Assembly (NCBI RefSeq): GCF_005849285.1
Contig: NZ_CP040517.1
Coordinates: forward strand, 1,990,501-2,054,500
DNA from: Luteithermobacter gelatinilyticus
GTDB lineage: Bacteria; Pseudomonadota; Alphaproteobacteria; Sphingomonadales; Emcibacteraceae
DNA length: 64,000 bases
Direction of reading: 5' to 3'
Shown: positions 30,220 through 41,238 of the stretch, piece by piece
Layout: each line of letters begins with the position of its first letter
Position numbering within the stretch: the stretch's first letter is position 1
Translations under genes and position numbers: made by a program
Notes under the pieces: model-generated
The model's input: the letters and a program-made list of their open reading frames with translations, nothing else
The model's database searches: none
What the model was told of the DNA's origin: nothing

Positions 30220-32778
30220 ATGTATGGCCAAACCTGTCGCCTCGCCTTAAGCGCTCTGTTGCATGATCTGGGGAAAATCACACAACGGGCCAGGGTGTAT
30301 GACCGGCACGAACGATTCGACGCTAGTAAAACCCTCTATTGTCCCTATCAGGACAAGGGCCAGTATCATTCCCATATTCACGCCGCCTGTACGGCCCTGT
30401 CTCTTGATGAGCTGGAAGAAAGTCTTCCGGATATCCTGAAGGGGGATACGAGCCCCTTTGCGTCCCGCACCGCCCCGGGAGAAGACATCACCGATTGCCT
30501 GGCCAACGCCGCCGCCATGCATCACCGGCCAGGAACCTTCCTGCAATGGTGCATTGCCGTGGCCGATCGAATTGCCTCCGGTTTTGAACGGGAAGAGTTC
30601 GATAAATACAATCAAAGTCGTGATCGGGAGGATTATATTACGGCGCAGTTGCGGACGATCTTCGCCATAGTGGGCAAGGAAGACGTCCAAAAGGAGGACA
30701 CCAAAACGAAGGACGATTGGTTCTATCCCCTTCGCCCGCTCTCCCCCGCCTCCATTTTTCCCATAAACATAAAAAAGGCAGAGCGCAGCCGGGAAGACGC
30801 CGCTAAGGAATATGAACAATTATGGCGGGGTCTGCTACAGGATCTGAAGAAAATCCCCCCCTCCCATCGCCGAAACTGGCCCTTGTGGCTGGATCATTTT
30901 GACAGCCTGTGGCTGACCTATAGTCACGCCGTTCCCTCGGCCACGGCATTCAACATCAGGCCCGATGTCTCGCTTTATGATCATTCCAAGACCACGGCGG
31001 CGTTGGCGACGGCGCTGTGGCGCTATCATGAGGAAACGGGACAAACCACAGCGGAAGCCGTGAAGGAGGATTGGGAAAGCAAGAAATTTCTGCTGATCCA
31101 GGGCGATTTCTTCGGCATTCAGGATTTTATTTTCAATAGCGAAACCCACACCGACAGCAAGATCGTCAAGCTACTACGCGGTCGATCCTTTTTTGTCTCC
31201 CTGCTGTGCGAATGCGCGGCTCTCAATGTGCTGGACAGCCTGGATCTGCCGCCGACGTCGCAGATCATCAATGCGGCCGGAAAGTTTCTGATTGTCGCCC
31301 CTAATACAACGCGGACGAAAAATGTCCTGAACACATTGCAGGCGGAATTCGATCAATGGTTTCTGGATCATACGCTGGGGCTGGCCGGTATTGGGTTGGC
31401 CACCTGTAGCGCCTCGCCCCGGGATTTCACCGAAAAGAAATTTGATTCCCTTAAAAAGAGCCTGTTTGACGCCCTGGAAAAGGCCAAATTCCAGAGGTTC
31501 AGCCTATGCGCCGCGGATGCGCCCGCCCCTCTCCGCCAGGCGGAATATCCCATAGGCCCTTGCGCTTATGACAGCCGTCTGCCGGCCCAGGAGGTCGAAG
31601 ACGGACAAAAGGTTAGCCGGCTTGCCCAGGATCAGATCCGGATCGGCGAGCTGCTGGCCAAGGAAAAATATTCCCGGCTCCTGATCTTTAACAGCTCTGA
31701 CAAAATATGGGACAGCCCAGGAAAACTCAAAACAGAAATTTTCGGTTATACCATTGTCCTGACCCGAAATGAGGATGAAACCGGAAAATTCGGCCGGCTT
31801 GCCGAAAGCGGCGTCCTGCGCCGGGCCTTTGACATTTCCCTGCCGGATCCCGCTTCCGGTAACGTCTGGGATGGCTACAGCCGCCGCAACATCAACGCCT
31901 ATGTCCCGCTGCACAAAAATGATCCAACGCAAGACGATCGTTACGACGACCTAGATAAAGCCGAACAGGGCGAGATCAAAACTTTTGAACATCTGTCCCG
32001 GGATGATCAAAATATGGATGAGAATGGAAAAATTTCGGGTATTTCCGGCCTCGGGGTGCTCAAGGGCGACATTGACAATCTGGGGCGAATGTTCCAGGAA
32101 AATACTAATAATTTCGCCAAATGGGCGTCACTCTCCCGACAGGTCAATAATTTCTTCGCCCTTTATCTTCCCTGGCTGTGTCAAAAGGAGCCGGCGTTCC
32201 AGAATATATACACCGTCTTCGCTGGCGGCGATGATTTCTACATGATTGGCCCCTGGTACAGCCTGCAGCGCTTCGCCGCGCGGATGCGCGACGATTTTCA
32301 CCGATATGTGGCCGAAAATCCCTACATCCATTTTTCGGCCGGTTACGGCATTTACAAAGCCGGCACGCCGTTGCGGTTGCTGACCGCGGGCGCCGAAGAA
32401 CAGCTGGAGAAAGCCAAAAAGAACAAGGAAAATAGAGAAAAAGACGCCTTTTCCATCTTTGACCAGACCGTCCCGTGGCAAGATTGGCCCCGGATCCGCG
32501 AAACGACCGAAACTGTCGCGGAACTGGCCGATACATATAATTTTTCCACGGCATATCTCTATGATCTGATCGAATTCACCCATATGGCCGAAACCATAAA
32601 CGACCATCCCGAGAATGCCCGCTGGCGATCTCTGTTCCAGTACCGCACCCGGCGCATGGTCAGCAACAAGGAGCAGAGCCTCAACGATCTCGCCCAAAAA
32701 ATCGGCGACCGCATCGACGAAACAGGCGGCAGATATCGCATCGCCCTGTTTAATCATGTTTACAGAAACCGCAAATAA
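30220..32778 (+). CDS. cas10: Cas10/Csm1, type III-A effector large subunit
   Basis: An 852-residue protein. It begins with an HD nuclease motif (ALLHDLGK, H15-D16). Two Palm domains follow; the second carries the intact cyclase motif VFAGGDDFYM (GGDD near 669-672), preceded by the typical GVLKGDIDNLGRMFQ of Palm2. It should cut single-stranded DNA with HD and convert ATP to cyclic oligoadenylate with GGDD when the complex meets target RNA. The CARF proteins encoded at 42-44.5 kb fit this output. Subtype III-A is fixed by the csm2 gene behind it. A zinc-type insertion was not recognised. Confidence 0.93.
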   Translation: MYGQTCRLALSALLHDLGKITQRARVYDRHERFDASKTLYCPYQDKGQYHSHIHAACTALSLDELEESLPDILKGDTSPFASRTAPGEDITDCLANAAAMHHRPGTFLQWCIAVADRIASGFEREEFDKYNQSRDREDYITAQLRTIFAIVGKEDVQKEDTKTKDDWFYPLRPLSPASIFPINIKKAERSREDAAKEYEQLWRGLLQDLKKIPPSHRRNWPLWLDHFDSLWLTYSHAVPSATAFNIRPDVSLYDHSKTTAALATALWRYHEETGQTTAEAVKEDWESKKFLLIQGDFFGIQDFIFNSETHTDSKIVKLLRGRSFFVSLLCECAALNVLDSLDLPPTSQIINAAGKFLIVAPNTTRTKNVLNTLQAEFDQWFLDHTLGLAGIGLATCSASPRDFTEKKFDSLKKSLFDALEKAKFQRFSLCAADAPAPLRQAEYPIGPCAYDSRLPAQEVEDGQKVSRLAQDQIRIGELLAKEKYSRLLIFNSSDKIWDSPGKLKTEIFGYTIVLTRNEDETGKFGRLAESGVLRRAFDISLPDPASGNVWDGYSRRNINAYVPLHKNDPTQDDRYDDLDKAEQGEIKTFEHLSRDDQNMDENGKISGISGLGVLKGDIDNLGRMFQENTNNFAKWASLSRQVNNFFALYLPWLCQKEPAFQNIYTVFAGGDDFYMIGPWYSLQRFAARMRDDFHRYVAENPYIHFSAGYGIYKAGTPLRLLTAGAEEQLEKAKKNKENREKDAFSIFDQTVPWQDWPRIRETTETVAELADTYNFSTAYLYDLIEFTHMAETINDHPENARWRSLFQYRTRRMVSNKEQSLNDLAQKIGDRIDETGGRYRIALFNHVYRNRK

Positions 32779-32792
32779 AGGGGGAAAACCGC

Positions 32793-33182
32793 ATGACACC
32801 TCAGATTGATATAAAGGATATTAAGCCGGAGCTGTTTCTCGACACAGCGAAAAGCTGGGCCCGGGAACTTCAACCCAAGGATAAAAACAAAGATAAAAAC
32901 AAAACCTCCCAAATGCGGAAATTCTACAATGAAGTCTGCAGCCTTGAGGAACGCCTTGCCGCCTGCCAGGATAAGCAGGAAAAGGAACAGCTGTTCAGCA
33001 AGCTGCAGCCCGGCCTGTGCATGCTGGTGCCCAAGGCCGAATACGCCAAAACACGGAAACATGTCGATGAGAACTTTGTCAAAATGATCAGAACCTGCAT
33101 CACGCAGGTGGACGGCCCGGACACCCTGGCCCATTTCAGAATGTTTTTCGAGGCCGTCATCGGCTATAGCAAAGAGAATTAA
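32793..33182 (+). CDS. csm2: Csm2, small subunit of the type III-A complex
   Basis: A 129-residue helical protein with the Csm2 features QMRKFYNEVCSLEERLAAC, LQPGLCMLVPKAEYAKTR and a final helix ending FFEAVIGYSKEN. It forms the Cas11-like inner filament that contacts target RNA. It starts 14 bp after cas10 and 17 bp before csm3. A short duplication, KDKNKDKNK, sits at residues 31-39. Confidence 0.9.
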   Translation: MTPQIDIKDIKPELFLDTAKSWARELQPKDKNKDKNKTSQMRKFYNEVCSLEERLAACQDKQEKEQLFSKLQPGLCMLVPKAEYAKTRKHVDENFVKMIRTCITQVDGPDTLAHFRMFFEAVIGYSKEN

Positions 33183-33199
33183 CCGAGGGGGATACTTAA

Positions 33200-33895
33200 A
33201 TGAAACTCAAAAATATCATCCGCATTACCGGAAAAATCGAATTAAAAACCGGCCTGCATATCGGTGGGGGAGATACTTCCATGCGCATCGGTGGCGCCGA
33301 CAGCACCGTGGTCAAACATCCGGTCACCAAACAGCCCTATATCCCGGGTTCCAGCCTCAAGGGCAAAATCCGCAGCCTGCTGGAATGGCGCACCGGCGAG
33401 GTTCAGGAAGCCCCGCTGTCCTGGAAGGATTATGAAAACAGCCAAAACCCGCAGGTGCTCAACATTCTGAAACTGTTCGGCGTCAGCGGCGATGCAAGTG
33501 CGGACGTTGGAAAGGGCCTCGGCGGCCCCACCCGCGTCAGTTTCGCCGATTGTATGATGAATCAGGAGTTCGCCGAACGGGTGAAATTCGATTTTTGTGA
33601 AATCAAAAGCGAAAACAGCATCAACCGCATCTCGGGAACGGCGGCCAATCCCCGCTTCTTCGAGCGTGTACCCGCCGGCAGTCTGTTCGATTTCGAGGTC
33701 ACCCTGCGCTGCTTCGATGGCGATGACGACGCAATGACCAATCTTTTGCTCGACGGCATGCGATTGCTGGAACTCGACAGCCTCGGTGCTAGCGGTTCGC
33801 GCGGCTATGGCAAGATCAAATTCACGGAACTTCGTCTCAATGATGAGGAAATCCAGGAAAAATTTGACGCCATCGCCCCCTTCAAAGCAGCCTGA
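33200..33895 (+). CDS. csm3: Csm3, backbone RAMP and target-RNA nuclease
   Basis: A 231-residue RAMP. TGLHIGGGD and the catalytic aspartate in MRIGGADSTVV (D34, counterpart of D33 in known Csm3) are present, so target RNA should be cut at 6-nt steps. The glycine-rich motif YIPGSSLKGKIRSLLEW follows, and SRGYGKIKF marks the second glycine-rich loop near 205-215. Several copies coat the crRNA. Upstream GAGGGGG acts as ribosome-binding site. Confidence 0.93.
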   Translation: MKLKNIIRITGKIELKTGLHIGGGDTSMRIGGADSTVVKHPVTKQPYIPGSSLKGKIRSLLEWRTGEVQEAPLSWKDYENSQNPQVLNILKLFGVSGDASADVGKGLGGPTRVSFADCMMNQEFAERVKFDFCEIKSENSINRISGTAANPRFFERVPAGSLFDFEVTLRCFDGDDDAMTNLLLDGMRLLELDSLGASGSRGYGKIKFTELRLNDEEIQEKFDAIAPFKAA

Positions 33896-33912
33896 TCCCA
33901 AGGACCAGAACC

Positions 33913-34854
33913 ATGAAATGGCACAGGATCATGATCCGCCCACAATCGGCCTTTGGCTCATCGCTCAAGGGCGATATGCTGTTTGGCCAGCTCTGCTGGG
34001 CTCTCCGGGAACGGTTCGGCGAGGGCCGCCTGAACAATCTGCTTGAAGGATATACGACAGGACGCCCCTTCGCCGTACTTTCTGATGCCTTTCCCACAGG
34101 CTTTCTGCCGCGCCCGACCCTGCCGCTCTCTTTCTGGGCTGAAACCGGTGCTGAGGACAGAAAAGCGGAAAAGGCCAAAAACTGGATAAGGGAAGAGCAA
34201 TTAGCCTTCCCGATTAACCGGGCTAGGGCCGAAAAAGTGGAAATTTTTGAATCCCAGCCCGCCTTCCACAACAGCATCAATCGGGAAACCGCCACCACGA
34301 TGGGGGCCAGTTTTGCCCCCTATCAAACGGAACAAAGTTGGCCGGCCAAAAGTCTTGATAGCCTGTCTCTTTTCCTGCTGCTAGAGGACGAACGGCTGGC
34401 GGCGGAAGAATTTAAACAGGCGTTTTGCGATATGGGACAGGTGGGCTTCGGCCGGGACGCTTCCATCGGCCTTGGCCGGTTTGAAGTGACTGCCATAGAA
34501 GAGGCCACACTGCCCGCCCCGGCGCAGCCCAATGCCGTCATGACACTGGCCCCCTGTGCGCCGCAAGGGGGAAACTGGCAGACAGAAAAATGTTATTATA
34601 AATCCTTTGTGCGCTTTGGTCGCCACGGTAACAGGGCCGCCCTGCTGGGCAACGCCTTTAAAAAGCCGGTTCTTCTGGCCGATACTGCCGCGGTTCTGAC
34701 CCCCTCGGGCGAACAGATGCCCGCGCCCTTTGCCGGTCAAGGATTAGGGGGCAGGGATAATCCCCTGTCCGCCGTCATGCCCGAAACCGTGCACCAGGGT
34801 TATGCCCCCGTCCTGCCGATCCAACTGGAAAAAGAAGGAGGGGACCAATCATGA
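33913..34854 (+). CDS. csm4: Csm4, crRNA 5'-handle-binding RAMP
   Basis: A 313-residue protein. It starts with the Cas5-like pattern MIRPQSAFGSSLKGDMLFGQ, then LCWALRERFG and PTGFLPRPTLPL; a second loop is GQVGFGRDASIGLGRFEV. Csm4 caps the crRNA 5' handle and binds Cas10. The gene overlaps csm5 by four bases (ATGA at 34851-34854). Confidence 0.9.
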   Translation: MKWHRIMIRPQSAFGSSLKGDMLFGQLCWALRERFGEGRLNNLLEGYTTGRPFAVLSDAFPTGFLPRPTLPLSFWAETGAEDRKAEKAKNWIREEQLAFPINRARAEKVEIFESQPAFHNSINRETATTMGASFAPYQTEQSWPAKSLDSLSLFLLLEDERLAAEEFKQAFCDMGQVGFGRDASIGLGRFEVTAIEEATLPAPAQPNAVMTLAPCAPQGGNWQTEKCYYKSFVRFGRHGNRAALLGNAFKKPVLLADTAAVLTPSGEQMPAPFAGQGLGGRDNPLSAVMPETVHQGYAPVLPIQLEKEGGDQS

Positions 34855-36284
34855 CCTTTATGATCCCAATACCCTATCGGCTGACGCCGATTTCCCCCAT
34901 CCATATCGGCTGTGGCGAAGAAGTAAACTGGGCCAGCACCCTGATCGACGGCCAAAACCTGCTGCTGATTGACCTGATGAAGGCCGAACTGCCGACTAAT
35001 CTCGCCCGCAAGATTATCGATATATCGCTGAAAAGCACAAATGAGCGCGGCCTGTTGCAATTACAGCAATTGTTCCGGGACAATCAGGCGATTCTCAAAA
35101 CCGCCGCCTATGACGCTATTCCGGTGCGTCCGAAGCTGTTGCAGGAATTCAAAAACAAGCTCGGCCGCAATGTTCAGAGAAACAACAAAAACGCCCCGAT
35201 CATCAACAAGCTGGATATTGCCCGCACCGCCTATGCGTCGCTCACCCACAGCCCCTATATCCCGGGCTCCAGCCTCAAGGGCGCCCTGCGCACCGCCTGG
35301 CTCGCCGATAAGGCAAAAAGGCAGCACGTAAAGCCAGGTAACCAAGGCAATGAACTGGATGAGAAAAAAATCCTGGGCGGAAGTTTCGCCACCGACCCCT
35401 TCCGGCTGATCCACATTGAGGATGGTATGACAACGGCGGAAAACCTTACGGAAGCTGCCTGGGCCAGCAACTGTAACCGTGAATCAGGCAAAGAAAAAAT
35501 CTCAAACCGGGTAGAGGTCATCCGCCCCTGTGCCTATGCGGCGTTTTCCGGCAGCCTCCGCCGGCGCGACCTGGGGGGGCGGCCCGCGAAAAACCATAAC
35601 CGCGAGGCGCAACCCGTTAACGCCCCGCCGCTCAGGGACCTGGTCAATACCGTCAATAATTATCATTTGAAGCTGTTTGAGGAACAGGCAAGGCAATGGC
35701 AAAATCTGAAGCAGATTGACCGAACATGGGTGGAGAAGACACAGCGACTTCTGGAAGAAGTGAATCGGCAGAATTGCATGCTGGTGCGGCTCGGCAAATA
35801 CGGCACGGCGGAAGGCAAGACCGTCAGCGATGACATGCTGCGTCAAGTCAAGGTCAAGGTTGGAAAAAAAGAATACAAAAAACAATCTCACGGCACCACC
35901 TTCTGGCTGGCGGGCGATTATCAGGCGCAAAGCGGATTTCTCCCTTTCGGCTGGGCGATCCTGGAAATCGGCGACTATCGGAGCAAGGTTCTTCAAGACT
36001 ATTGCGAGACCCTTGGGAAGAAAGCCCCTGGAACGCCGTCCGCCATGCCGAAAGATCCCGTACCCAAAGATCCCCAAAAGGCGCTGCAATGGCTCAAGGC
36101 AAAGCTCGGTCCGGCCACGAGAAACAAGGAAGCCCAGGCCGATCTGGTCATACAGGTTATTTCCAGTGCCGGATCATGGCCAATTGATGACCGTTATGAG
36201 TTGAGCGATCTTCTGGCCGATTACAACTTTGGCAAGTTCCATCAGGACATCGACGATCTGCTGGAGGAGATATGCGAGGAATAA
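34851..36284 (+). CDS. csm5: Csm5, crRNA 3'-end RAMP
   Basis: A 477-residue RAMP with LTPISPIHIGCGEEVNW at the start, the glycine-rich motif SPYIPGSSLKGALRTAWLAD near 135-155, and a long C-terminal half as usual for Csm5, including WLAGDYQAQSGFLPFGWAIL. It closes the 3' side of the complex and helps crRNA trimming. It overlaps the cas6 start by 13 bp. Confidence 0.9.
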   Translation: MTFMIPIPYRLTPISPIHIGCGEEVNWASTLIDGQNLLLIDLMKAELPTNLARKIIDISLKSTNERGLLQLQQLFRDNQAILKTAAYDAIPVRPKLLQEFKNKLGRNVQRNNKNAPIINKLDIARTAYASLTHSPYIPGSSLKGALRTAWLADKAKRQHVKPGNQGNELDEKKILGGSFATDPFRLIHIEDGMTTAENLTEAAWASNCNRESGKEKISNRVEVIRPCAYAAFSGSLRRRDLGGRPAKNHNREAQPVNAPPLRDLVNTVNNYHLKLFEEQARQWQNLKQIDRTWVEKTQRLLEEVNRQNCMLVRLGKYGTAEGKTVSDDMLRQVKVKVGKKEYKKQSHGTTFWLAGDYQAQSGFLPFGWAILEIGDYRSKVLQDYCETLGKKAPGTPSAMPKDPVPKDPQKALQWLKAKLGPATRNKEAQADLVIQVISSAGSWPIDDRYELSDLLADYNFGKFHQDIDDLLEEICEE

Positions 36285-37216
36285 CCGCACCCGAAATTCC
36301 CTTCTCCATCGCCAGCTACCGCATCACGGCGGAACTTCAGGAAGACTTCCGGCTGCCGGATTTTGCGGGCTCCCTGCTGCGCGGCGTCTATGGCCGGGCG
36401 CTCAGACGGATTTCCTGCATGACCGGGGAAAAGGAATGTCGCGACTGCCCGCTGCTCGCCACCTGTCCGTTTCCAGAACTGTTCGACCCGCCGGCGCCTG
36501 ACCCCGCAGCCGGGCATGTCACGCCTGCCCCCTATGTGATCCGGCCTCCCCGGTGGGGCGCGCGACCCATCAAGGCCGGGGAGAGTCTGATCTTCGACAT
36601 GCGGTTATTCGGCCGGGCGACCGGGCGGCTTCCCTTTGTCATTCAGGCGTGGCGACAAGCCTTGGGACGCGGCATCGGTCGTGGCGAGAACAGAGCGCGC
36701 GCCCTGATCGACCATGTGGATCATCTGGAAAGCGGCCAAACTATCTTTACTGCGGAAGAGGGACAGATCATAGCGCATGACGCCGCCCCACCCCATCTGC
36801 CGCCGGAGACAGTCGCCCGTGACGTCGCCCTCACCTTCCACACCCCGTTCCGCTCCCAGGTTCAGGGCAGACCCCTGTCCCCCGAAGCGCTCACCCCCCG
36901 ACGCCTTATTGCCGACATTATCCGTCGGGCACGGCTTCTAAGCGTAGCGCAGAACGGCACACCCTGCGGCGTAGACTGGCCGGTGGAGCGGTGGCTGGAA
37001 GCAGCCGACAATATTACCCATGATAAGGATCTCACTTGGCAGGACTGGCGCCGTTATTCCAATCGACAACACAAGACCATGACTTTAGGGGGTGTCATGG
37101 GCGTGTGGCGCTGGCGACAGGTACCACCGGACCTTATCACCCTTTTGCATATGGGCGAAATCCTGCATGTGGGCAAACAGACCGTGTTTGGTTTCGGCAG
37201 GATGAGCTGCATTTAA
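36272..37216 (+). CDS. cas6: Cas6, pre-crRNA endoribonuclease
   Basis: A 314-residue RAMP of the Cas6 family. LPDFAGSLLRGVYGRALRRI and the cysteine set CMTGEKECRDCPLLATCPF near 45-65 mark the subfamily, which may hold a zinc site. Near the C-terminus, MTLGGVMGVWRWRQVP and LHVGKQTVFGFGRM are the conserved loop and the glycine-rich motif. It should cut repeats eight bases before their 3' end, leaving the AUUGAGAC tag. It is the last gene of the effector operon. Confidence 0.9.
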   Translation: MRGITAPEIPFSIASYRITAELQEDFRLPDFAGSLLRGVYGRALRRISCMTGEKECRDCPLLATCPFPELFDPPAPDPAAGHVTPAPYVIRPPRWGARPIKAGESLIFDMRLFGRATGRLPFVIQAWRQALGRGIGRGENRARALIDHVDHLESGQTIFTAEEGQIIAHDAAPPHLPPETVARDVALTFHTPFRSQVQGRPLSPEALTPRRLIADIIRRARLLSVAQNGTPCGVDWPVERWLEAADNITHDKDLTWQDWRRYSNRQHKTMTLGGVMGVWRWRQVPPDLITLLHMGEILHVGKQTVFGFGRMSCI

Positions 37217-37277
37217 CCCTTTGCTCTTTGACATTGTGAATGGGGGCGATCTTTTTGCCAACACATTGCGACTGGAA

Positions 37278-37291
37278 TGCCAATATTGGCA
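37278..37291. promoter_or_regulatory. TGCCAATATTGGCA palindrome, copy 2 (before cas2-cas1-cas2)
   Basis: Identical to the copies at 30123 and 41261. It lies in the 165-bp gap between cas6 and the first cas2, 91-104 bp upstream of that ATG (37382), so it could control the adaptation genes separately from the effector operon. Confidence 0.75.
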
Positions 37292-37381
37292 GGCTGGACG
37301 CGGCATGGCGTTCCTGCCAGACTTATTCATAAGCAAAAAAGCCAGAAACAGGACCAGAAACAGAAAAGGGGAGCACCATTC

Positions 37382-37663
37382 ATGAGCCAGAGAGCTTTCT
37401 ATCTCGTCGCCTATGATATCTCGCACCCGGCACGCCTGCGGCGGGTGGGCGCTGCGGTAAAAGCCTATCTGACCTGTGGTCAGAAATCGGTGCCCGAATG
37501 CTGGATGACGCCCGTCGAACGGGAGCTTCTGTTCCAACAACTGTCCGAACTGATCGCCCATGATCAGGACCGCATCCATGCATTCCGCTTGGATCCACGT
37601 CAGACGCCGCTCCTAATGGGAACAGCCCAGCGCATCACCGGCGCCCCCTTTATCATCTCCTGA
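37382..37663 (+). CDS. cas2: Cas2, first copy
   Basis: The ATG at 37382 with GGGGAG upstream gives a 93-residue protein; longer versions of this ORF run through the palindrome and are not credible. The start FYLVAYDISHPARLRRVGAA contains the Cas2 first strand and the conserved Asp after Tyr. The rest (VERELLFQQLSELI, QDRIHAFRLD) fits the ferredoxin-like fold. It forms the integrase with Cas1. A second, longer cas2 follows cas1. Confidence 0.87.
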   Translation: MSQRAFYLVAYDISHPARLRRVGAAVKAYLTCGQKSVPECWMTPVERELLFQQLSELIAHDQDRIHAFRLDPRQTPLLMGTAQRITGAPFIIS

Positions 37664-37689: not shown

Positions 37690-38658
37690 ATGAGCAGTCT
37701 TTATATCGACCGGCGCGGTATCACGATCAGGTTGGAAAGTGACGCCCTAGTTTTTCACGACTCTGGTGAGCGGATTGGCACCGTTCCGATCGCACCGCTG
37801 GAAAGAATTTATCTGCGCGGCAATGTCACCCTGTCCTCCAGTCTTCTGGGCCGGCTGGGTCGTAAGGGGGTAGGCATTGTGGTATTGTCCGGCCGCAAGG
37901 GAGACGCCTCCCTGCTCCTGCCTCGCCCGCATAATGACGCCCGCCTGCGCGTGATGCAGTATGAAACTACCCGTGATCCGGCACGCGCCCTGCCACTGGC
38001 CCAGGCCACGGTTCATGCAAAGCTCAAAGCCCAGGCAAATTTTTTGGAACAGGCCGCAGAGCAACGTCCGGCGAAACGTCATGCCCTGATCACTGCCGCC
38101 CAAACCCTCAAGGTGATGACCGGACATGCCTTCCGCAAATCCGATCTTGCTGCATTACGCGGCTTGGAAGGTGCTGCTGCCGCAACCTATTTTTCAGCTT
38201 ACGCTCACCTAATACCGCCGAGCGCCAATTTCAGGGGCCGCAACCGCCGCCCGCCCCGGGATCCGGTTAATGCTTGTCTGTCACTGGCCTATACCCTTTT
38301 ACATGCCGAGGCCACGCTGGCCGCCTATGGCCACGGATTTGATCCCTATATCGGTTTTCTGCACGATCTGGATTTTGGGCGGGAATCGCTCGCCTGCGAT
38401 TTGGTGGAACCGTTACGGCCGGAAATGGATCGTTTTGTCTGGCGGATGTTTGCCGATCAAGCCCTCCGCGCGCGGGATTTCAGCACAGAAAAAGGCGGAG
38501 CTTGTCTTATGGGCAAGGCGGCAAGGGAAAGTTTTTACAACCATGTCGAACAACCGCTGGAGACGGTGCGCAAACGCCTGGAAGAAACACTGAAAACCCT
38601 GCGGCGCTATATTTTGGAGACAACGGACCATGACGACCCCGTATCTGATCGGCTATGA
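37690..38658 (+). CDS. cas1: Cas1 integrase
   Basis: A 322-residue Cas1. The metal ligands are E160 (RGLEGAAAATYF), H225 (YIGFLHDLDFG) and D237 (ACDLVEPLRPEMDR). The N-terminal beta domain (SSLYIDRRGITIRLESDALV, then LERIYLRGNVTLSSSLLGR) is complete. It has no fused reverse transcriptase, so it should take spacers from DNA. It lies between two cas2 genes and overlaps the second by 29 bp. Confidence 0.93.
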   Translation: MSSLYIDRRGITIRLESDALVFHDSGERIGTVPIAPLERIYLRGNVTLSSSLLGRLGRKGVGIVVLSGRKGDASLLLPRPHNDARLRVMQYETTRDPARALPLAQATVHAKLKAQANFLEQAAEQRPAKRHALITAAQTLKVMTGHAFRKSDLAALRGLEGAAAATYFSAYAHLIPPSANFRGRNRRPPRDPVNACLSLAYTLLHAEATLAAYGHGFDPYIGFLHDLDFGRESLACDLVEPLRPEMDRFVWRMFADQALRARDFSTEKGGACLMGKAARESFYNHVEQPLETVRKRLEETLKTLRRYILETTDHDDPVSDRL

Positions 38659-39070
38659 TATCGCCCATCCCCGGCGTCTAGGCCGTCTCCATCGCCGTCT
38701 TAAAGGCTATGGTATCCCGATTCAGTATTCCTTGTTTCTATGCAGTCTCACGGAAACCCGGCTTGCAGAGTGCGTCGCCATGATTGAAGAGATCATCAAT
38801 CCGCGCGAAGATGATGTCAGGCTGTATCCGCTGCCCACCAATTACTGGTCTTTCCGCTTGGGTCGGGCCGTGCTGCCCGACGGCATAGTTCATACCGATC
38901 TGCCTGCCAGCTGGCGTGGGGAAAAGGCCAAAAAGCCGCTGACCACAGATCCGGCCATGAACGCCGATTTTTCCCGCAAAAAACTGGTCCGCCGCCTGGA
39001 TGCCACGACACGTAAACTGATTGCCACCACTCAGACCGGTCAGAAAAAAGGCCTTTATTACATTCCCTAA
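38630..39070 (+). CDS. cas2: Cas2, second and longer copy
   Basis: A 146-residue Cas2-type protein starting MTTPYLIGYDIAHPRRLGRL, with VQYSLF-like IPIQYSLFLCSLTE and DDVRLYPLP, which are the standard Cas2 strands. About 50 extra C-terminal residues (RKKLVRRLDATTRKLIATTQ) are basic and could contact the leader. The two Cas2 proteins differ clearly, so they may form a hetero-pair or serve different steps; this is inferred. The gene ends 148 bp before the first repeat. Confidence 0.87.
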   Translation: MTTPYLIGYDIAHPRRLGRLHRRLKGYGIPIQYSLFLCSLTETRLAECVAMIEEIINPREDDVRLYPLPTNYWSFRLGRAVLPDGIVHTDLPASWRGEKAKKPLTTDPAMNADFSRKKLVRRLDATTRKLIATTQTGQKKGLYYIP

Positions 39071-39218
39071 GTCTCCTAAAACACACTTTTTAAGAGCTCT
39101 GCACCAACACAATACACCCATACAGGACATATTCATGAGACAACTGAGGAATTTGAATTATTTCTGTCTATTCACCCCGGCAAGCATTTATTCTTGCAAA
39201 TAAATTTCATATGGTGCA
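39071..39218 (+). promoter_or_regulatory. CRISPR leader
   Basis: The AT-rich 148-bp stretch between cas2 and the first repeat must hold the array promoter and the integration signals. Repeat orientation (3' end ATTGAGAC) and the decayed repeat at the other end both place the leader here. A box such as TTGAATTATTTCTGTCTATT at 39153-39172 is a possible promoter element, not proven. Confidence 0.7.
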
Positions 39219-41238
39219 GTTTGAATAACGCCCCGTTCTTCAGGGGATTGAGACAGTCCCAGTTATACAACAATTCGCGAGCGGCGATGTTTGAATAACG
39301 CCCCGTTCTTCAGGGGATTGAGACTTATTTTCATTTGTCCCTCTTTGTCATTCAATTTAGTTTGAATAACGCCCCGTTCTTCAGGGGATTGAGACTGATC
39401 CCCGAGGCGCGGGTGCGGGATAATCCCGCGTTTGAATAACGCCCCGTTCTTCAGGGGATTGAGACCCCACTCTCCATTCGCCTTGCGCGCGCCGATCTTG
39501 TTTGAATAACGCCCCGTTCTTCAGGGGATTGAGACACCCCGTTTTTGTAAAGATTGCGGCCCTTTATCGTTTGAATAACGCCCCGTTCTTCAGGGGATTG
39601 AGACGATCCTGTACCTTATAGTACAGGATAGGGCCTTGCTCGTTTGAATAACGCCCCGTTCTTCAGGGGATTGAGACATGATATAGATCATGTATTGCTT
39701 TTGTGATCTTATCGTTTGAATAACGCCCCGTTCTTCAGGGGATTGAGACCCTGCGGCGCGGGCCAGACAGACTGCCACCAGCAGGTTTGAATAACGCCCC
39801 GTTCTTCAGGGGATTGAGACTTTGTGGATTGTCGGTATCGCGCTTCCCAGTCGAGTTTGAATAACGCCCCGTTCTTCAGGGGATTGAGACTCGAGGAGCT
39901 CTGCGGGGGATACACCATGATCCCGTTTGAATAACGCCCCGTTCTTCAGGGGATTGAGACGTCCCAGTTCCGCCACAATTTGCGAGCGGCGATAATGTTT
40001 GAATAACGCCCCGTTCTTCAGGGGATTGAGACTTGGCCTTTGTGGCCAAGGAAGCCAAAGTTTTTTGTGTTTGAATAACGCCCCGTTCTTCAGGGGATTG
40101 AGACTGATTTTAAAGGATGGATATATCGCATAACAAACGTTTGAATAACGCCCCGTTCTTCAGGGGATTGAGACAATGTGGAGCCGGGACAGGTCGTGTC
40201 CCAGCCAGGTTTGAATAACGCCCCGTTCTTCAGGGGATTGAGACCTGCCCACTCCTGTTTGTCGAGCAGCTCCCGCATCTCGTTTGAATAACGCCCCGTT
40301 CTTCAGGGGATTGAGACAGCTTCCTCGGCCCTGGCCTTGGCGGCCAGGTTTTGTTTGAATAACGCCCCGTTCTTCAGGGGATTGAGACTTGTGGCCAGTC
40401 CGCGACCATATCATCGGTCGCGGCGTTTGAATAACGCCCCGTTCTTCAGGGGATTGAGACCGGTGGCCCTTGTGGGTGTTTTGGTTAGTTTCATTGTTTG
40501 AATAACGCCCCGTTCTTCAGGGGATTGAGACTTTATTTTCTCAATTATTTTATCCATCTCTTCCTCGTTTGAATAACGCCCCGTTCTTCAGGGGATTGAG
40601 ACGCGACATCAAATAATGTCGCGGCCCGGCACCAGGGTTTGAATAACGCCCCGTTCTTCAGGGGATTGAGACAGAAGGGAGGTTTCAATCTCCTCCCCGA
40701 GCTCCGTTTGAATAACGCCCCGTTCTTCAGGGGATTGAGACGGTATGCCAGCCCCCGTCTTCCTGGAGCTCGAGGTGTTTGAATAACGCCCCGTTCTTCA
40801 GGGGATTGAGACACCACTAAGTGGCCCCTATTCATCACATCCATTCATGTTTGAATAACGCCCCGTTCTTCAGGGGATTGAGACTTATCCTCAGTCGCAA
40901 GGATTTTATCCTTGCGAGTTTGAATAACGCCCCGTTCTTCAGGGGATTGAGACTCGGTGTCTGCGATTAATTCTAGAAGTTCCGGCTCTGTTTGAATAAC
41001 GCCCCGTTCTTCAGGGGATTGAGACATCATCGGTCGCGGCCATGAGCCGCTCAATCTCGGGTTTGAATAACGCCCCGTTCTTCAGGGGATTGAGACGCGG
41101 GTGCGGGGGGCGATACCCCCCACAAGATTAAGTTTGAATAACGCCCCGTTCTTCAGGGGATTGAGACCAGCTGTAGCGATCCATCAGCTCCCGGCCTGTG
41201 ACGTTTGAATAACGCCCCGTTCTTCAGGGGATTTCAGT
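39219..41238 (+). CRISPR. type III-A CRISPR array, 29 repeats and 28 spacers
   Basis: The 36-bp repeat runs GTTTGAATAACG ... CAGGGGATTGAGAC and contains a CCCC/GGGG stem. Repeats start at 39219, 39289, 39360, 39430, 39500, 39569, 39642, 39714, 39785, 39855, 39925, 39997, 40069, 40139, 40209, 40282, 40353, 40425, 40496, 40567, 40637, 40706, 40777, 40849, 40918, 40990, 41061, 41132 and 41203. Spacers are 33-37 nt. All repeats look identical except the last, whose 3' end has decayed (GGGGATTTCAG), so the trailer is on the right and transcription goes rightward. Many spacers contain perfect hairpins, and some are related to each other; see findings. ORFs called inside the array are artefacts of the repeat. 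Confidence 0.97.

What the first reader, a model, noticed from the sequence alone, without database searches (positions are those of the whole stretch)
39255..41202. Type III-A spacers are strongly enriched in perfect hairpins
At least 10 of 28 spacers contain a perfect inverted repeat of 6 bp or more with a loop of 1-9 nt: GCGGGAT/ATCCCGC (39415-39429), ATCCTGTAC/GTACAGGAT (39606-39629), TTGGCC/GGCCAA (40033-40049), GGGACA/TGTCCC (40186-40202), CCTGGCC/GGCCAGG (40330-40348), CCGCGACC/GGTCGCGG (40400-40423), GCGACAT/ATGTCGC (40603-40622), GGGAGG/CCTCCC (40677-40697), TCGCAAGGAT/ATCCTTGCGA (40895-40917) and GGGGGG/CCCCCC (41105-41121). Three more have 5-bp stems. A hand estimate for random 35-mers (171 placements x 4^-6) gives 0.04 per spacer, or about 1.2 in 28. 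Preference of type III-A adaptation for DNA able to fold has been reported, as I recall, for Streptococcus thermophilus; here it is visible in a natural alphaproteobacterial array. It suggests capture of hairpin DNA by the Cas1 with two Cas2 proteins, or targeting of terminators and other structured sites.
Basis: partly seen in the sequence, partly recalled or inferred. Interest (0 to 1): 0.82.

Follow-up and report, generated by a model that had tools for sequence, protein, structure and literature searches.

The report
Type III CRISPR spacers favour DNA hairpins
The immune memory of this bacterium's type III-A CRISPR system is made, far more often than chance and far more often than its other CRISPR arrays, of sequences that fold into hairpins, and about 2,000 spacers from related systems show the same bias with a strand-specific signature, which suggests that the capture machinery takes up folded single strands.

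Summary
Ten of 28 spacers hold a perfect stem of 6 bp or more (loop 1-9). Shuffles give 1.1-1.6, and none of 1,000 reached 10. Two other arrays of the same genome, in type II style, give 3 of 56 distinct spacers.

The bias extends to related type III arrays. Among 1,978 spacers, stems of 8 bp or more occur in 4.95%, against 0.53% of GC-matched genomic DNA. In 17 genomes with both kinds of array, type III has 74/1195 and other types 14/1086. Enrichment peaks at loops of 3-6 nt, is absent at loop 0 and shows no T-tracts, so these are hairpins, not dsDNA palindromes or terminators.

New here: imperfect stems carry A·C mismatches, which are G·T/G·U on the complementary strand, three times as often as G·T (67 vs 22; natural DNA 47 vs 48). 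The folded strand is therefore the complement of the crRNA, which has the sense of the target RNA. The window genome has no detectable reverse transcriptase.

Best reading: uptake of folded, probably transcription-exposed single-stranded DNA, as reported for Streptococcus thermophilus. No protospacer was found, and one genome (G131) shows equal hairpins in its type I array.

The parts
30220..36284 (+). csm1 (cas10, with HD and GGDD), csm2, csm3, csm4, csm5: type III-A effector
   Evidence: NCBIfam TIGR02578, TIGR01870, TIGR02582, TIGR01903, TIGR01899 over cut-off; HD at residue 15, GGDD at 669
36272..37216 (+). cas6
   Evidence: Pfam PF10040 E 4e-11
37277..37663 (+). cas2 (first copy)
   Evidence: Pfam PF09827
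37690..38658 (+). cas1, no reverse transcriptase fused
   Evidence: TIGR00287 E 5e-59; conserved E160, H225, D237
38630..39070 (+). cas2 (second, divergent copy; 31% identical to the first over 64 aa)
   Evidence: PF09827; BLASTP
39071..39217 (+). leader region between cas2 and the first repeat (inferred)
   Evidence: position
39218..41238 (+). CRISPR array, 28 spacers; 36-nt repeat ending in the type III handle ATTGAGAC, so the + strand is the crRNA sense
   Evidence: handle assignment by analogy with known type III repeats (own knowledge)
39415..39429 (.). hairpin in spacer 3 (7 bp, loop 1)
39606..39629 (.). hairpin in spacer 6 (9 bp, loop 6)
40033..40049 (.). hairpin in spacer 12 (6 bp)
40183..40205 (.). 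hairpin in spacer 14: 6 bp perfect, extended to 9 positions through one C.A mismatch (= G.T/G.U on the - strand)
40330..40348 (.). hairpin in spacer 16 (7 bp)
40400..40423 (.). hairpin in spacer 17 (8 bp); its loop and right arm recur in spacer 26, taken from an overlapping stretch
40603..40622 (.). hairpin in spacer 20 (7 bp)
40677..40697 (.). hairpin in spacer 21 (6 bp; next pair A.C)
40895..40917 (.). hairpin in spacer 24 (10 bp, loop 3)
41102..41124 (.). hairpin in spacer 27: 6 bp perfect, extended to 9 positions through one C.A mismatch

Best explanation
The Cas1-Cas2 adaptation module of this type III-A family preferentially takes up DNA that folds into a short stem-loop when single-stranded. 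The folded strand is the one complementary to the crRNA, which has the sense of the RNA the system targets. The likely substrate is therefore the non-template strand exposed during transcription (or ssDNA exposed in replication), folded into a hairpin whose duplex stem serves as prespacer. Antisense spacers are then kept because only they match a transcript, or integration itself is oriented. Shown here: the excess, its hairpin-type loop dependence, its restriction to type III arrays in most same-genome comparisons, the strand-specific wobble, and its presence in genomes without a detectable reverse transcriptase. Inferred: that the substrate is DNA, that transcription exposes it, and that Cas1-Cas2 makes the choice.
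For: Window: 10/28 vs 1.6 expected and vs 3/56 in the genome's other arrays. Clade: 1978 spacers, >=8 bp 4.95% vs 0.53% in GC-matched natural DNA, >=10 bp 1.77% vs 0.08%; random phage/plasmid DNA 0.28-1.16% for >=8 bp. Same-genome pairs in 17 genomes: 74/1195 vs 14/1086, p = 3e-10, holding after length matching. Loop profile for >=8-bp stems: 3 vs 2.4 expected at loop 0, 13-20 vs 1.1-1.5 at loops 3-5. Wobble: stems of 9 or more with a wobble, A.C 67 vs G.T 22; length-10 single-wobble stems 15 vs 1.2 expected for A.C, 1 vs 1.2 for G.T; same-genome non-III spacers 12 vs 20. Deduplicated by shared 12- or 14-mers: still 3.6-4.2% for >=8 bp and A.C 32-45 vs G.T 12-15. No RVT_1 match in G000 and 11 further genomes that, pooled, keep both effects. 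Overlapping spacers from one source site are hairpin-rich: 12.1% vs 3.7% with >=8 bp. Literature: the S. thermophilus III-A system prefers structured DNA and the coding strand, and an RT-free S. epidermidis III-A system prefers rRNA/tRNA genes, neither preference being seen in co-resident type II (PMC9048733).
Against: No protospacer was found for the window, so neither the hairpin in the source, nor the strand transcribed, nor the absence of a PAM was seen. In G131 the type I array is as hairpin-rich as the type III arrays (7/106 vs 23/308 with >=8 bp). Several gamma- and betaproteobacterial arrays show little or no excess (L090 0/102, G879 0/30). A few genomes (G131, G803) contribute a large share of the long stems. 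The genomes were found through Cas1 similarity and are not a random sample of type III systems.
Confidence: 0.66

Rival explanations
1. The invaders themselves are rich in hairpins, and the arrays sample them without preference.
For: In G131 the type I and type III arrays are equally hairpin-rich. Several spacers of one genome come from variants of the same hairpin element (G803, G131). One Caulobacter phage stretch reaches 1.2% for >=8-bp stems.
Against: In the other 16 paired genomes non-III arrays have 7/980 and III arrays 51/887 with >=8 bp. The window's type II arrays show no excess. Random phage and plasmid DNA stays at 0.3-1.2%.
Confidence: 0.16
2. Spacers are copied from structured RNA (by a reverse transcriptase or direct RNA integration), which explains G.U pairs on the target-RNA strand.
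For: Wobble pairs fall on the RNA-sense strand. One relative (L107) has a reverse transcriptase-primase fusion beside cas1.
Against: No RVT_1 protein in the window genome or in G803, G811, G628, G816, G801, G810, G316 and others, which pooled show both effects. DNA and RNA folding energies of that strand predict spacers equally well.
Confidence: 0.08
3. Selection after uptake: structured targets or structured crRNAs work better or do less harm, so hairpin spacers are kept.
For: Antisense selection probably contributes to the strand polarity; type III spacers as a whole are pyrimidine-rich (53%).
Against: Perfect stems, which fold the crRNA too, are enriched as much as A.C stems, so unfolded crRNA is not selected. 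Hairpin spacers do not accumulate with age in the array. A folded target should be harder to bind.
Confidence: 0.08
4. The spacers target intrinsic terminators.
For: Spacers 12 and 16 have a stem followed by T residues.
Against: TTTT follows the stem in only 1 of 103 cases and AAAA precedes it in 1 of 108.
Confidence: 0.02

Closest known systems
Structure-preferring adaptation of Streptococcus thermophilus type III-A (Zhang et al. 2021, via review PMC9048733)
   Same: Type III-A, RT-free, preference for sequences able to form DNA secondary structure, absent from the co-resident type II system, coding strand involved
   Different: There: fresh uptake measured by sequencing from plasmids and host. 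Here: natural arrays of Proteobacteria and others, with a strand-specific wobble signature; Cas1 with two divergent Cas2 proteins (or an additional degenerate Cas1)
Staphylococcus epidermidis type III-A adaptation (Aviram et al. 2022, via PMC9048733)
   Same: RT-free type III-A with preference for rRNA and tRNA genes
   Different: No host-derived spacers in the window array; only single rRNA-like spacers seen in relatives
RT-Cas1 type III systems (Marinomonas mediterranea; Silas et al. 2016, via PMC9048733)
   Same: Type III, spacers from transcribed sequence
   Different: No reverse transcriptase in the window genome

Membership tests
Type III-A CRISPR-Cas | csm1-csm5 effector with Cas10, cas6, cas1, cas2 and an array | tested here: met
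Structure-preferring type III adaptation (S. thermophilus type) | spacers enriched in hairpin-forming sequence over shuffled and natural DNA | tested here: met
Structure-preferring type III adaptation (S. thermophilus type) | not shown by other CRISPR types in the same cell | tested here: met
   exception G131
Structure-preferring type III adaptation (S. thermophilus type) | structured strand is the coding strand | tested here: inconclusive
   wobble shows that the folded strand is the complement of the crRNA; that it is the coding strand rests on the type III targeting rule, no protospacer seen
Structure-preferring type III adaptation (S. thermophilus type) | uptake from host rRNA and tRNA genes | tested here: inconclusive
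   no full-length self match for the window (best 27 nt at 89%); one 23S-like spacer in a relative
Structure-preferring type III adaptation (S. thermophilus type) | PAM-independent, needs only Cas1 and Cas2 | not testable with these tools
   no protospacers; experiment needed
RT-Cas1 RNA-acquiring type III | reverse transcriptase fused to or beside Cas1 | tested here: not met

The most novel reading that the evidence does not exclude
This type III adaptation module, with an asymmetric integrase (one Cas1 with two different Cas2 proteins, or Cas1 plus a degenerate Cas1 and two Cas2 proteins), binds a folded single strand and inserts it in a fixed orientation, so that the crRNA is the complement of the hairpin strand. 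Orientation would then be set by structure at capture and not by later selection.
Probability: 0.2. Interest if true: 0.85.

Novelty: new variant of a known kind. Interest (0 to 1): 0.62.

Why it matters
How type III systems, which need spacers antisense to transcripts and use no PAM, choose what to remember is an open question. Natural arrays from dozens of genomes now show that a structure preference measured so far in two Firmicutes is also visible in Proteobacteria, and they give a polarity signature (G.T/G.U on the target-sense strand) that separates folded coding-strand DNA, RNA capture and unbiased uptake. The question can be tested directly by uptake sequencing.

Tried and rejected
Protospacer search: array against phages, plasmids and 60 related genomes, seven pattern scans of viral contigs, related arrays against phages and family genomes: no protospacer for the window; the hits near G131 are homologous gene stretches, not protospacers. 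Snap-back synthesis as the source of the palindromes: rejected, because overlapping independent spacers show the same hairpin at different offsets and because enriched stems include wobble pairs on one strand only. Hairpins abutting spacer ends: a mild excess (23 and 18 vs 10.5), as expected from long stems cut at the spacer end; not pursued. Rfam match in the array: none. tRNA T-arm motifs in type III spacers: none above chance. BoxA-like spacers: only the array itself matched in the draft genome, so host origin is unproven.

Full report
What is there. The window carries a complete type III-A locus: csm1-csm5 (30220-36284), cas6, cas2, cas1, a second cas2 and an array of 28 spacers at 39218-41238. 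Cas10 has HD and GGDD motifs and Cas1 keeps the conserved E, H and D residues. The two Cas2 proteins are divergent (31% over 64 aa). The repeat ends in ATTGAGAC, a type III handle, so the + strand reads as crRNA (handle assignment from general knowledge).

Ten of 28 spacers have a perfect stem of at least 6 bp with loop 1-9. Mononucleotide shuffles average 1.05, dinucleotide shuffles 1.61 and window 35-mers 1.55; no set in 1000-2000 exceeded 6. Stems of 7, 8 and 9 bp or more number 6, 3 and 2, against about 0.4, 0.1 and 0.03 expected. The same genome holds two further arrays with 30-nt spacers beside other Cas1 genes; they give 3 of 56 distinct spacers, Fisher p = 6e-4 against the type III array. 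Their spacers are 5 nt shorter, which lowers the expectation only slightly.

The effect is general. Cas1 relatives led to 68 further stretches of DNA with repeats of the same kind (...GGGATT[A/G]AGAC), 1978 distinct spacers. Stems >=6 bp: 15.0% vs 6.2% in GC-matched DNA from the same loci; >=8: 4.95 vs 0.53%; >=10: 1.77 vs 0.08%. Random 35-mers of four phages, one partial phage genome and one plasmid give 0.28-1.16% for >=8 bp. Collapsing spacers that share 12- or 14-mers leaves 3.6-4.2%. Leaving out the family of G131 leaves 3.4% of 1291.

Same-genome control. In 17 genomes that hold both type III arrays of this kind and other arrays, stems >=8 bp occur in 74 of 1195 type III and 14 of 1086 other spacers (odds ratio 5, p = 3e-10; 4.7 after length matching). 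Half of the 14 come from one genome, G131, where the type I array is as hairpin-rich as the type III arrays (7/106 vs 23/308, p = 1). So the invader pool contributes there, or that array was fed by the same machinery; elsewhere it is 51/887 vs 7/980. Some type III arrays show no excess (L090, G879, L063, L055), so the strength varies.

Hairpins and not palindromes. For stems of 8 bp or more, loop 0 gives 3 against 2.4 expected, loops 3, 4, 5 and 6 give 13, 20, 19 and 12 against 1.1-1.5. Operators or restriction sites would peak at loop 0. No T-tract follows the stems (1 of 103) and no A-tract precedes them (1 of 108), so they are not intrinsic terminators in either orientation.

Strand polarity (new). 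In stems interrupted by one mismatch, A.C is far commoner than G.T: 15 vs 2, 25 vs 5 with a looser rule. Counting stems of 9 or more positions with at least one wobble: A.C 67, G.T 22, while natural DNA has 47 and 48 in 6000, same-genome non-III spacers 12 and 20, and type I-C 4 and 7. At length 10 with one wobble, A.C stems are 12-fold enriched, as perfect stems are (11-fold), and G.T stems not at all (0.8-fold). A.C in the spacer is G.T (G.U) on the other strand. So the molecule that folds is the complement of the crRNA, which has the sense of the RNA the system would recognise. In the window, spacers 14 and 27 extend their stems through C.A, spacer 21 is flanked by A.C, and none extends through G.T. 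After deduplication the asymmetry remains (32-45 vs 12-15, p = 0.004 to 0.0003).

DNA or RNA. RNA capture would explain G.U pairs, but a search for reverse transcriptases (RVT_1) finds none in the window genome nor in eleven further genomes, and these, pooled, show both the hairpins (5.95% >=8 bp) and the asymmetry (40 vs 9). One relative, L107, does have a reverse transcriptase-primase fusion beside cas1. RNA and DNA energies of that strand predict spacers equally well. The simplest reading is folded single-stranded DNA of the coding strand, as proposed for S. thermophilus (PMC9048733). Whether the polarity comes from oriented insertion or from selection for antisense spacers cannot be told here; type III spacers as a whole are pyrimidine-rich (53%), as expected for antisense spacers.

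Hairpins are native to the source. Spacers 17 and 26 of the window share 15 nt and derive from overlapping stretches. In G131 and G803 several spacers show one hairpin at different offsets and in sequence variants; in L211 a pair of spacers differs by a compensating change in the stem. Spacers in such overlapping groups carry >=8-bp stems in 12.1% of cases against 3.7% for single ones, which looks like repeated uptake at hairpin sites.

Limits. No protospacer was found for the window. Hence source, PAM, transcription and strand could not be observed. The sample follows Cas1 similarity. Exact p-values assume independent spacers, which the deduplicated figures only partly ensure. The polarity was noticed in the data and then tested on the same data with other thresholds and controls; an independent set of arrays would be the proper confirmation.

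Relation to what is known. Preference for structured DNA was shown by uptake experiments in S. thermophilus, and preference for rRNA and tRNA genes in an RT-free S. epidermidis system (reviewed in PMC9048733). The library search found no survey of natural arrays for hairpins and no report of the wobble polarity, though most subscription papers are not held, including the original S. thermophilus paper.

Noticed in passing
L115:11784-12713 and next to cas1 in G803, G811, G816, G884-G890, G893, G894: Many related adaptation modules appear to be cas2-cas1-cas1'-cas2', with a second, degenerate Cas1 paralogue directly after cas1 (only the N-terminal Cas1 domain is recognised; order read out in L115). 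Its role is unknown; it could make the integrase asymmetric.
   Followed up: partly
window 37277-37663 and 38630-39070: Two divergent cas2 genes flank cas1 (31% identity over 64 aa), possibly a Cas2 heterodimer.
   Followed up: partly
L107:3706-6999: Candidatus Acididesulfobacter: a 1097-aa protein with reverse transcriptase, archaeo-eukaryotic primase and Mu Gam-like domains beside a type III cas1, with a SAVED protein nearby; its arrays are strongly hairpin-enriched.
   Followed up: no
L084:11722-11752: A type III spacer of Bisgaardia hudsonensis matches 23S rRNA (90% to enterobacterial 23S over 31 nt), in the sense orientation.
   Followed up: partly
arrays of L044, L072, L090: Four spacers share TTGTTAAAGA, the complement of the rRNA/phage antitermination boxA; all are antisense to boxA and none occurs among 1086 non-III spacers.
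   Followed up: partly
L018:6100-8442: One of the genome's other arrays holds the same 30-nt spacer three times (CCGCGCACAGGGTGTGGGTACAACCACTGC).
   Followed up: no
window 39255-39288 and 39961-39996: Spacers 1 and 11 are variants of one source sequence, probably a coding stretch (VPV..QFASGD in one frame).
   Followed up: partly
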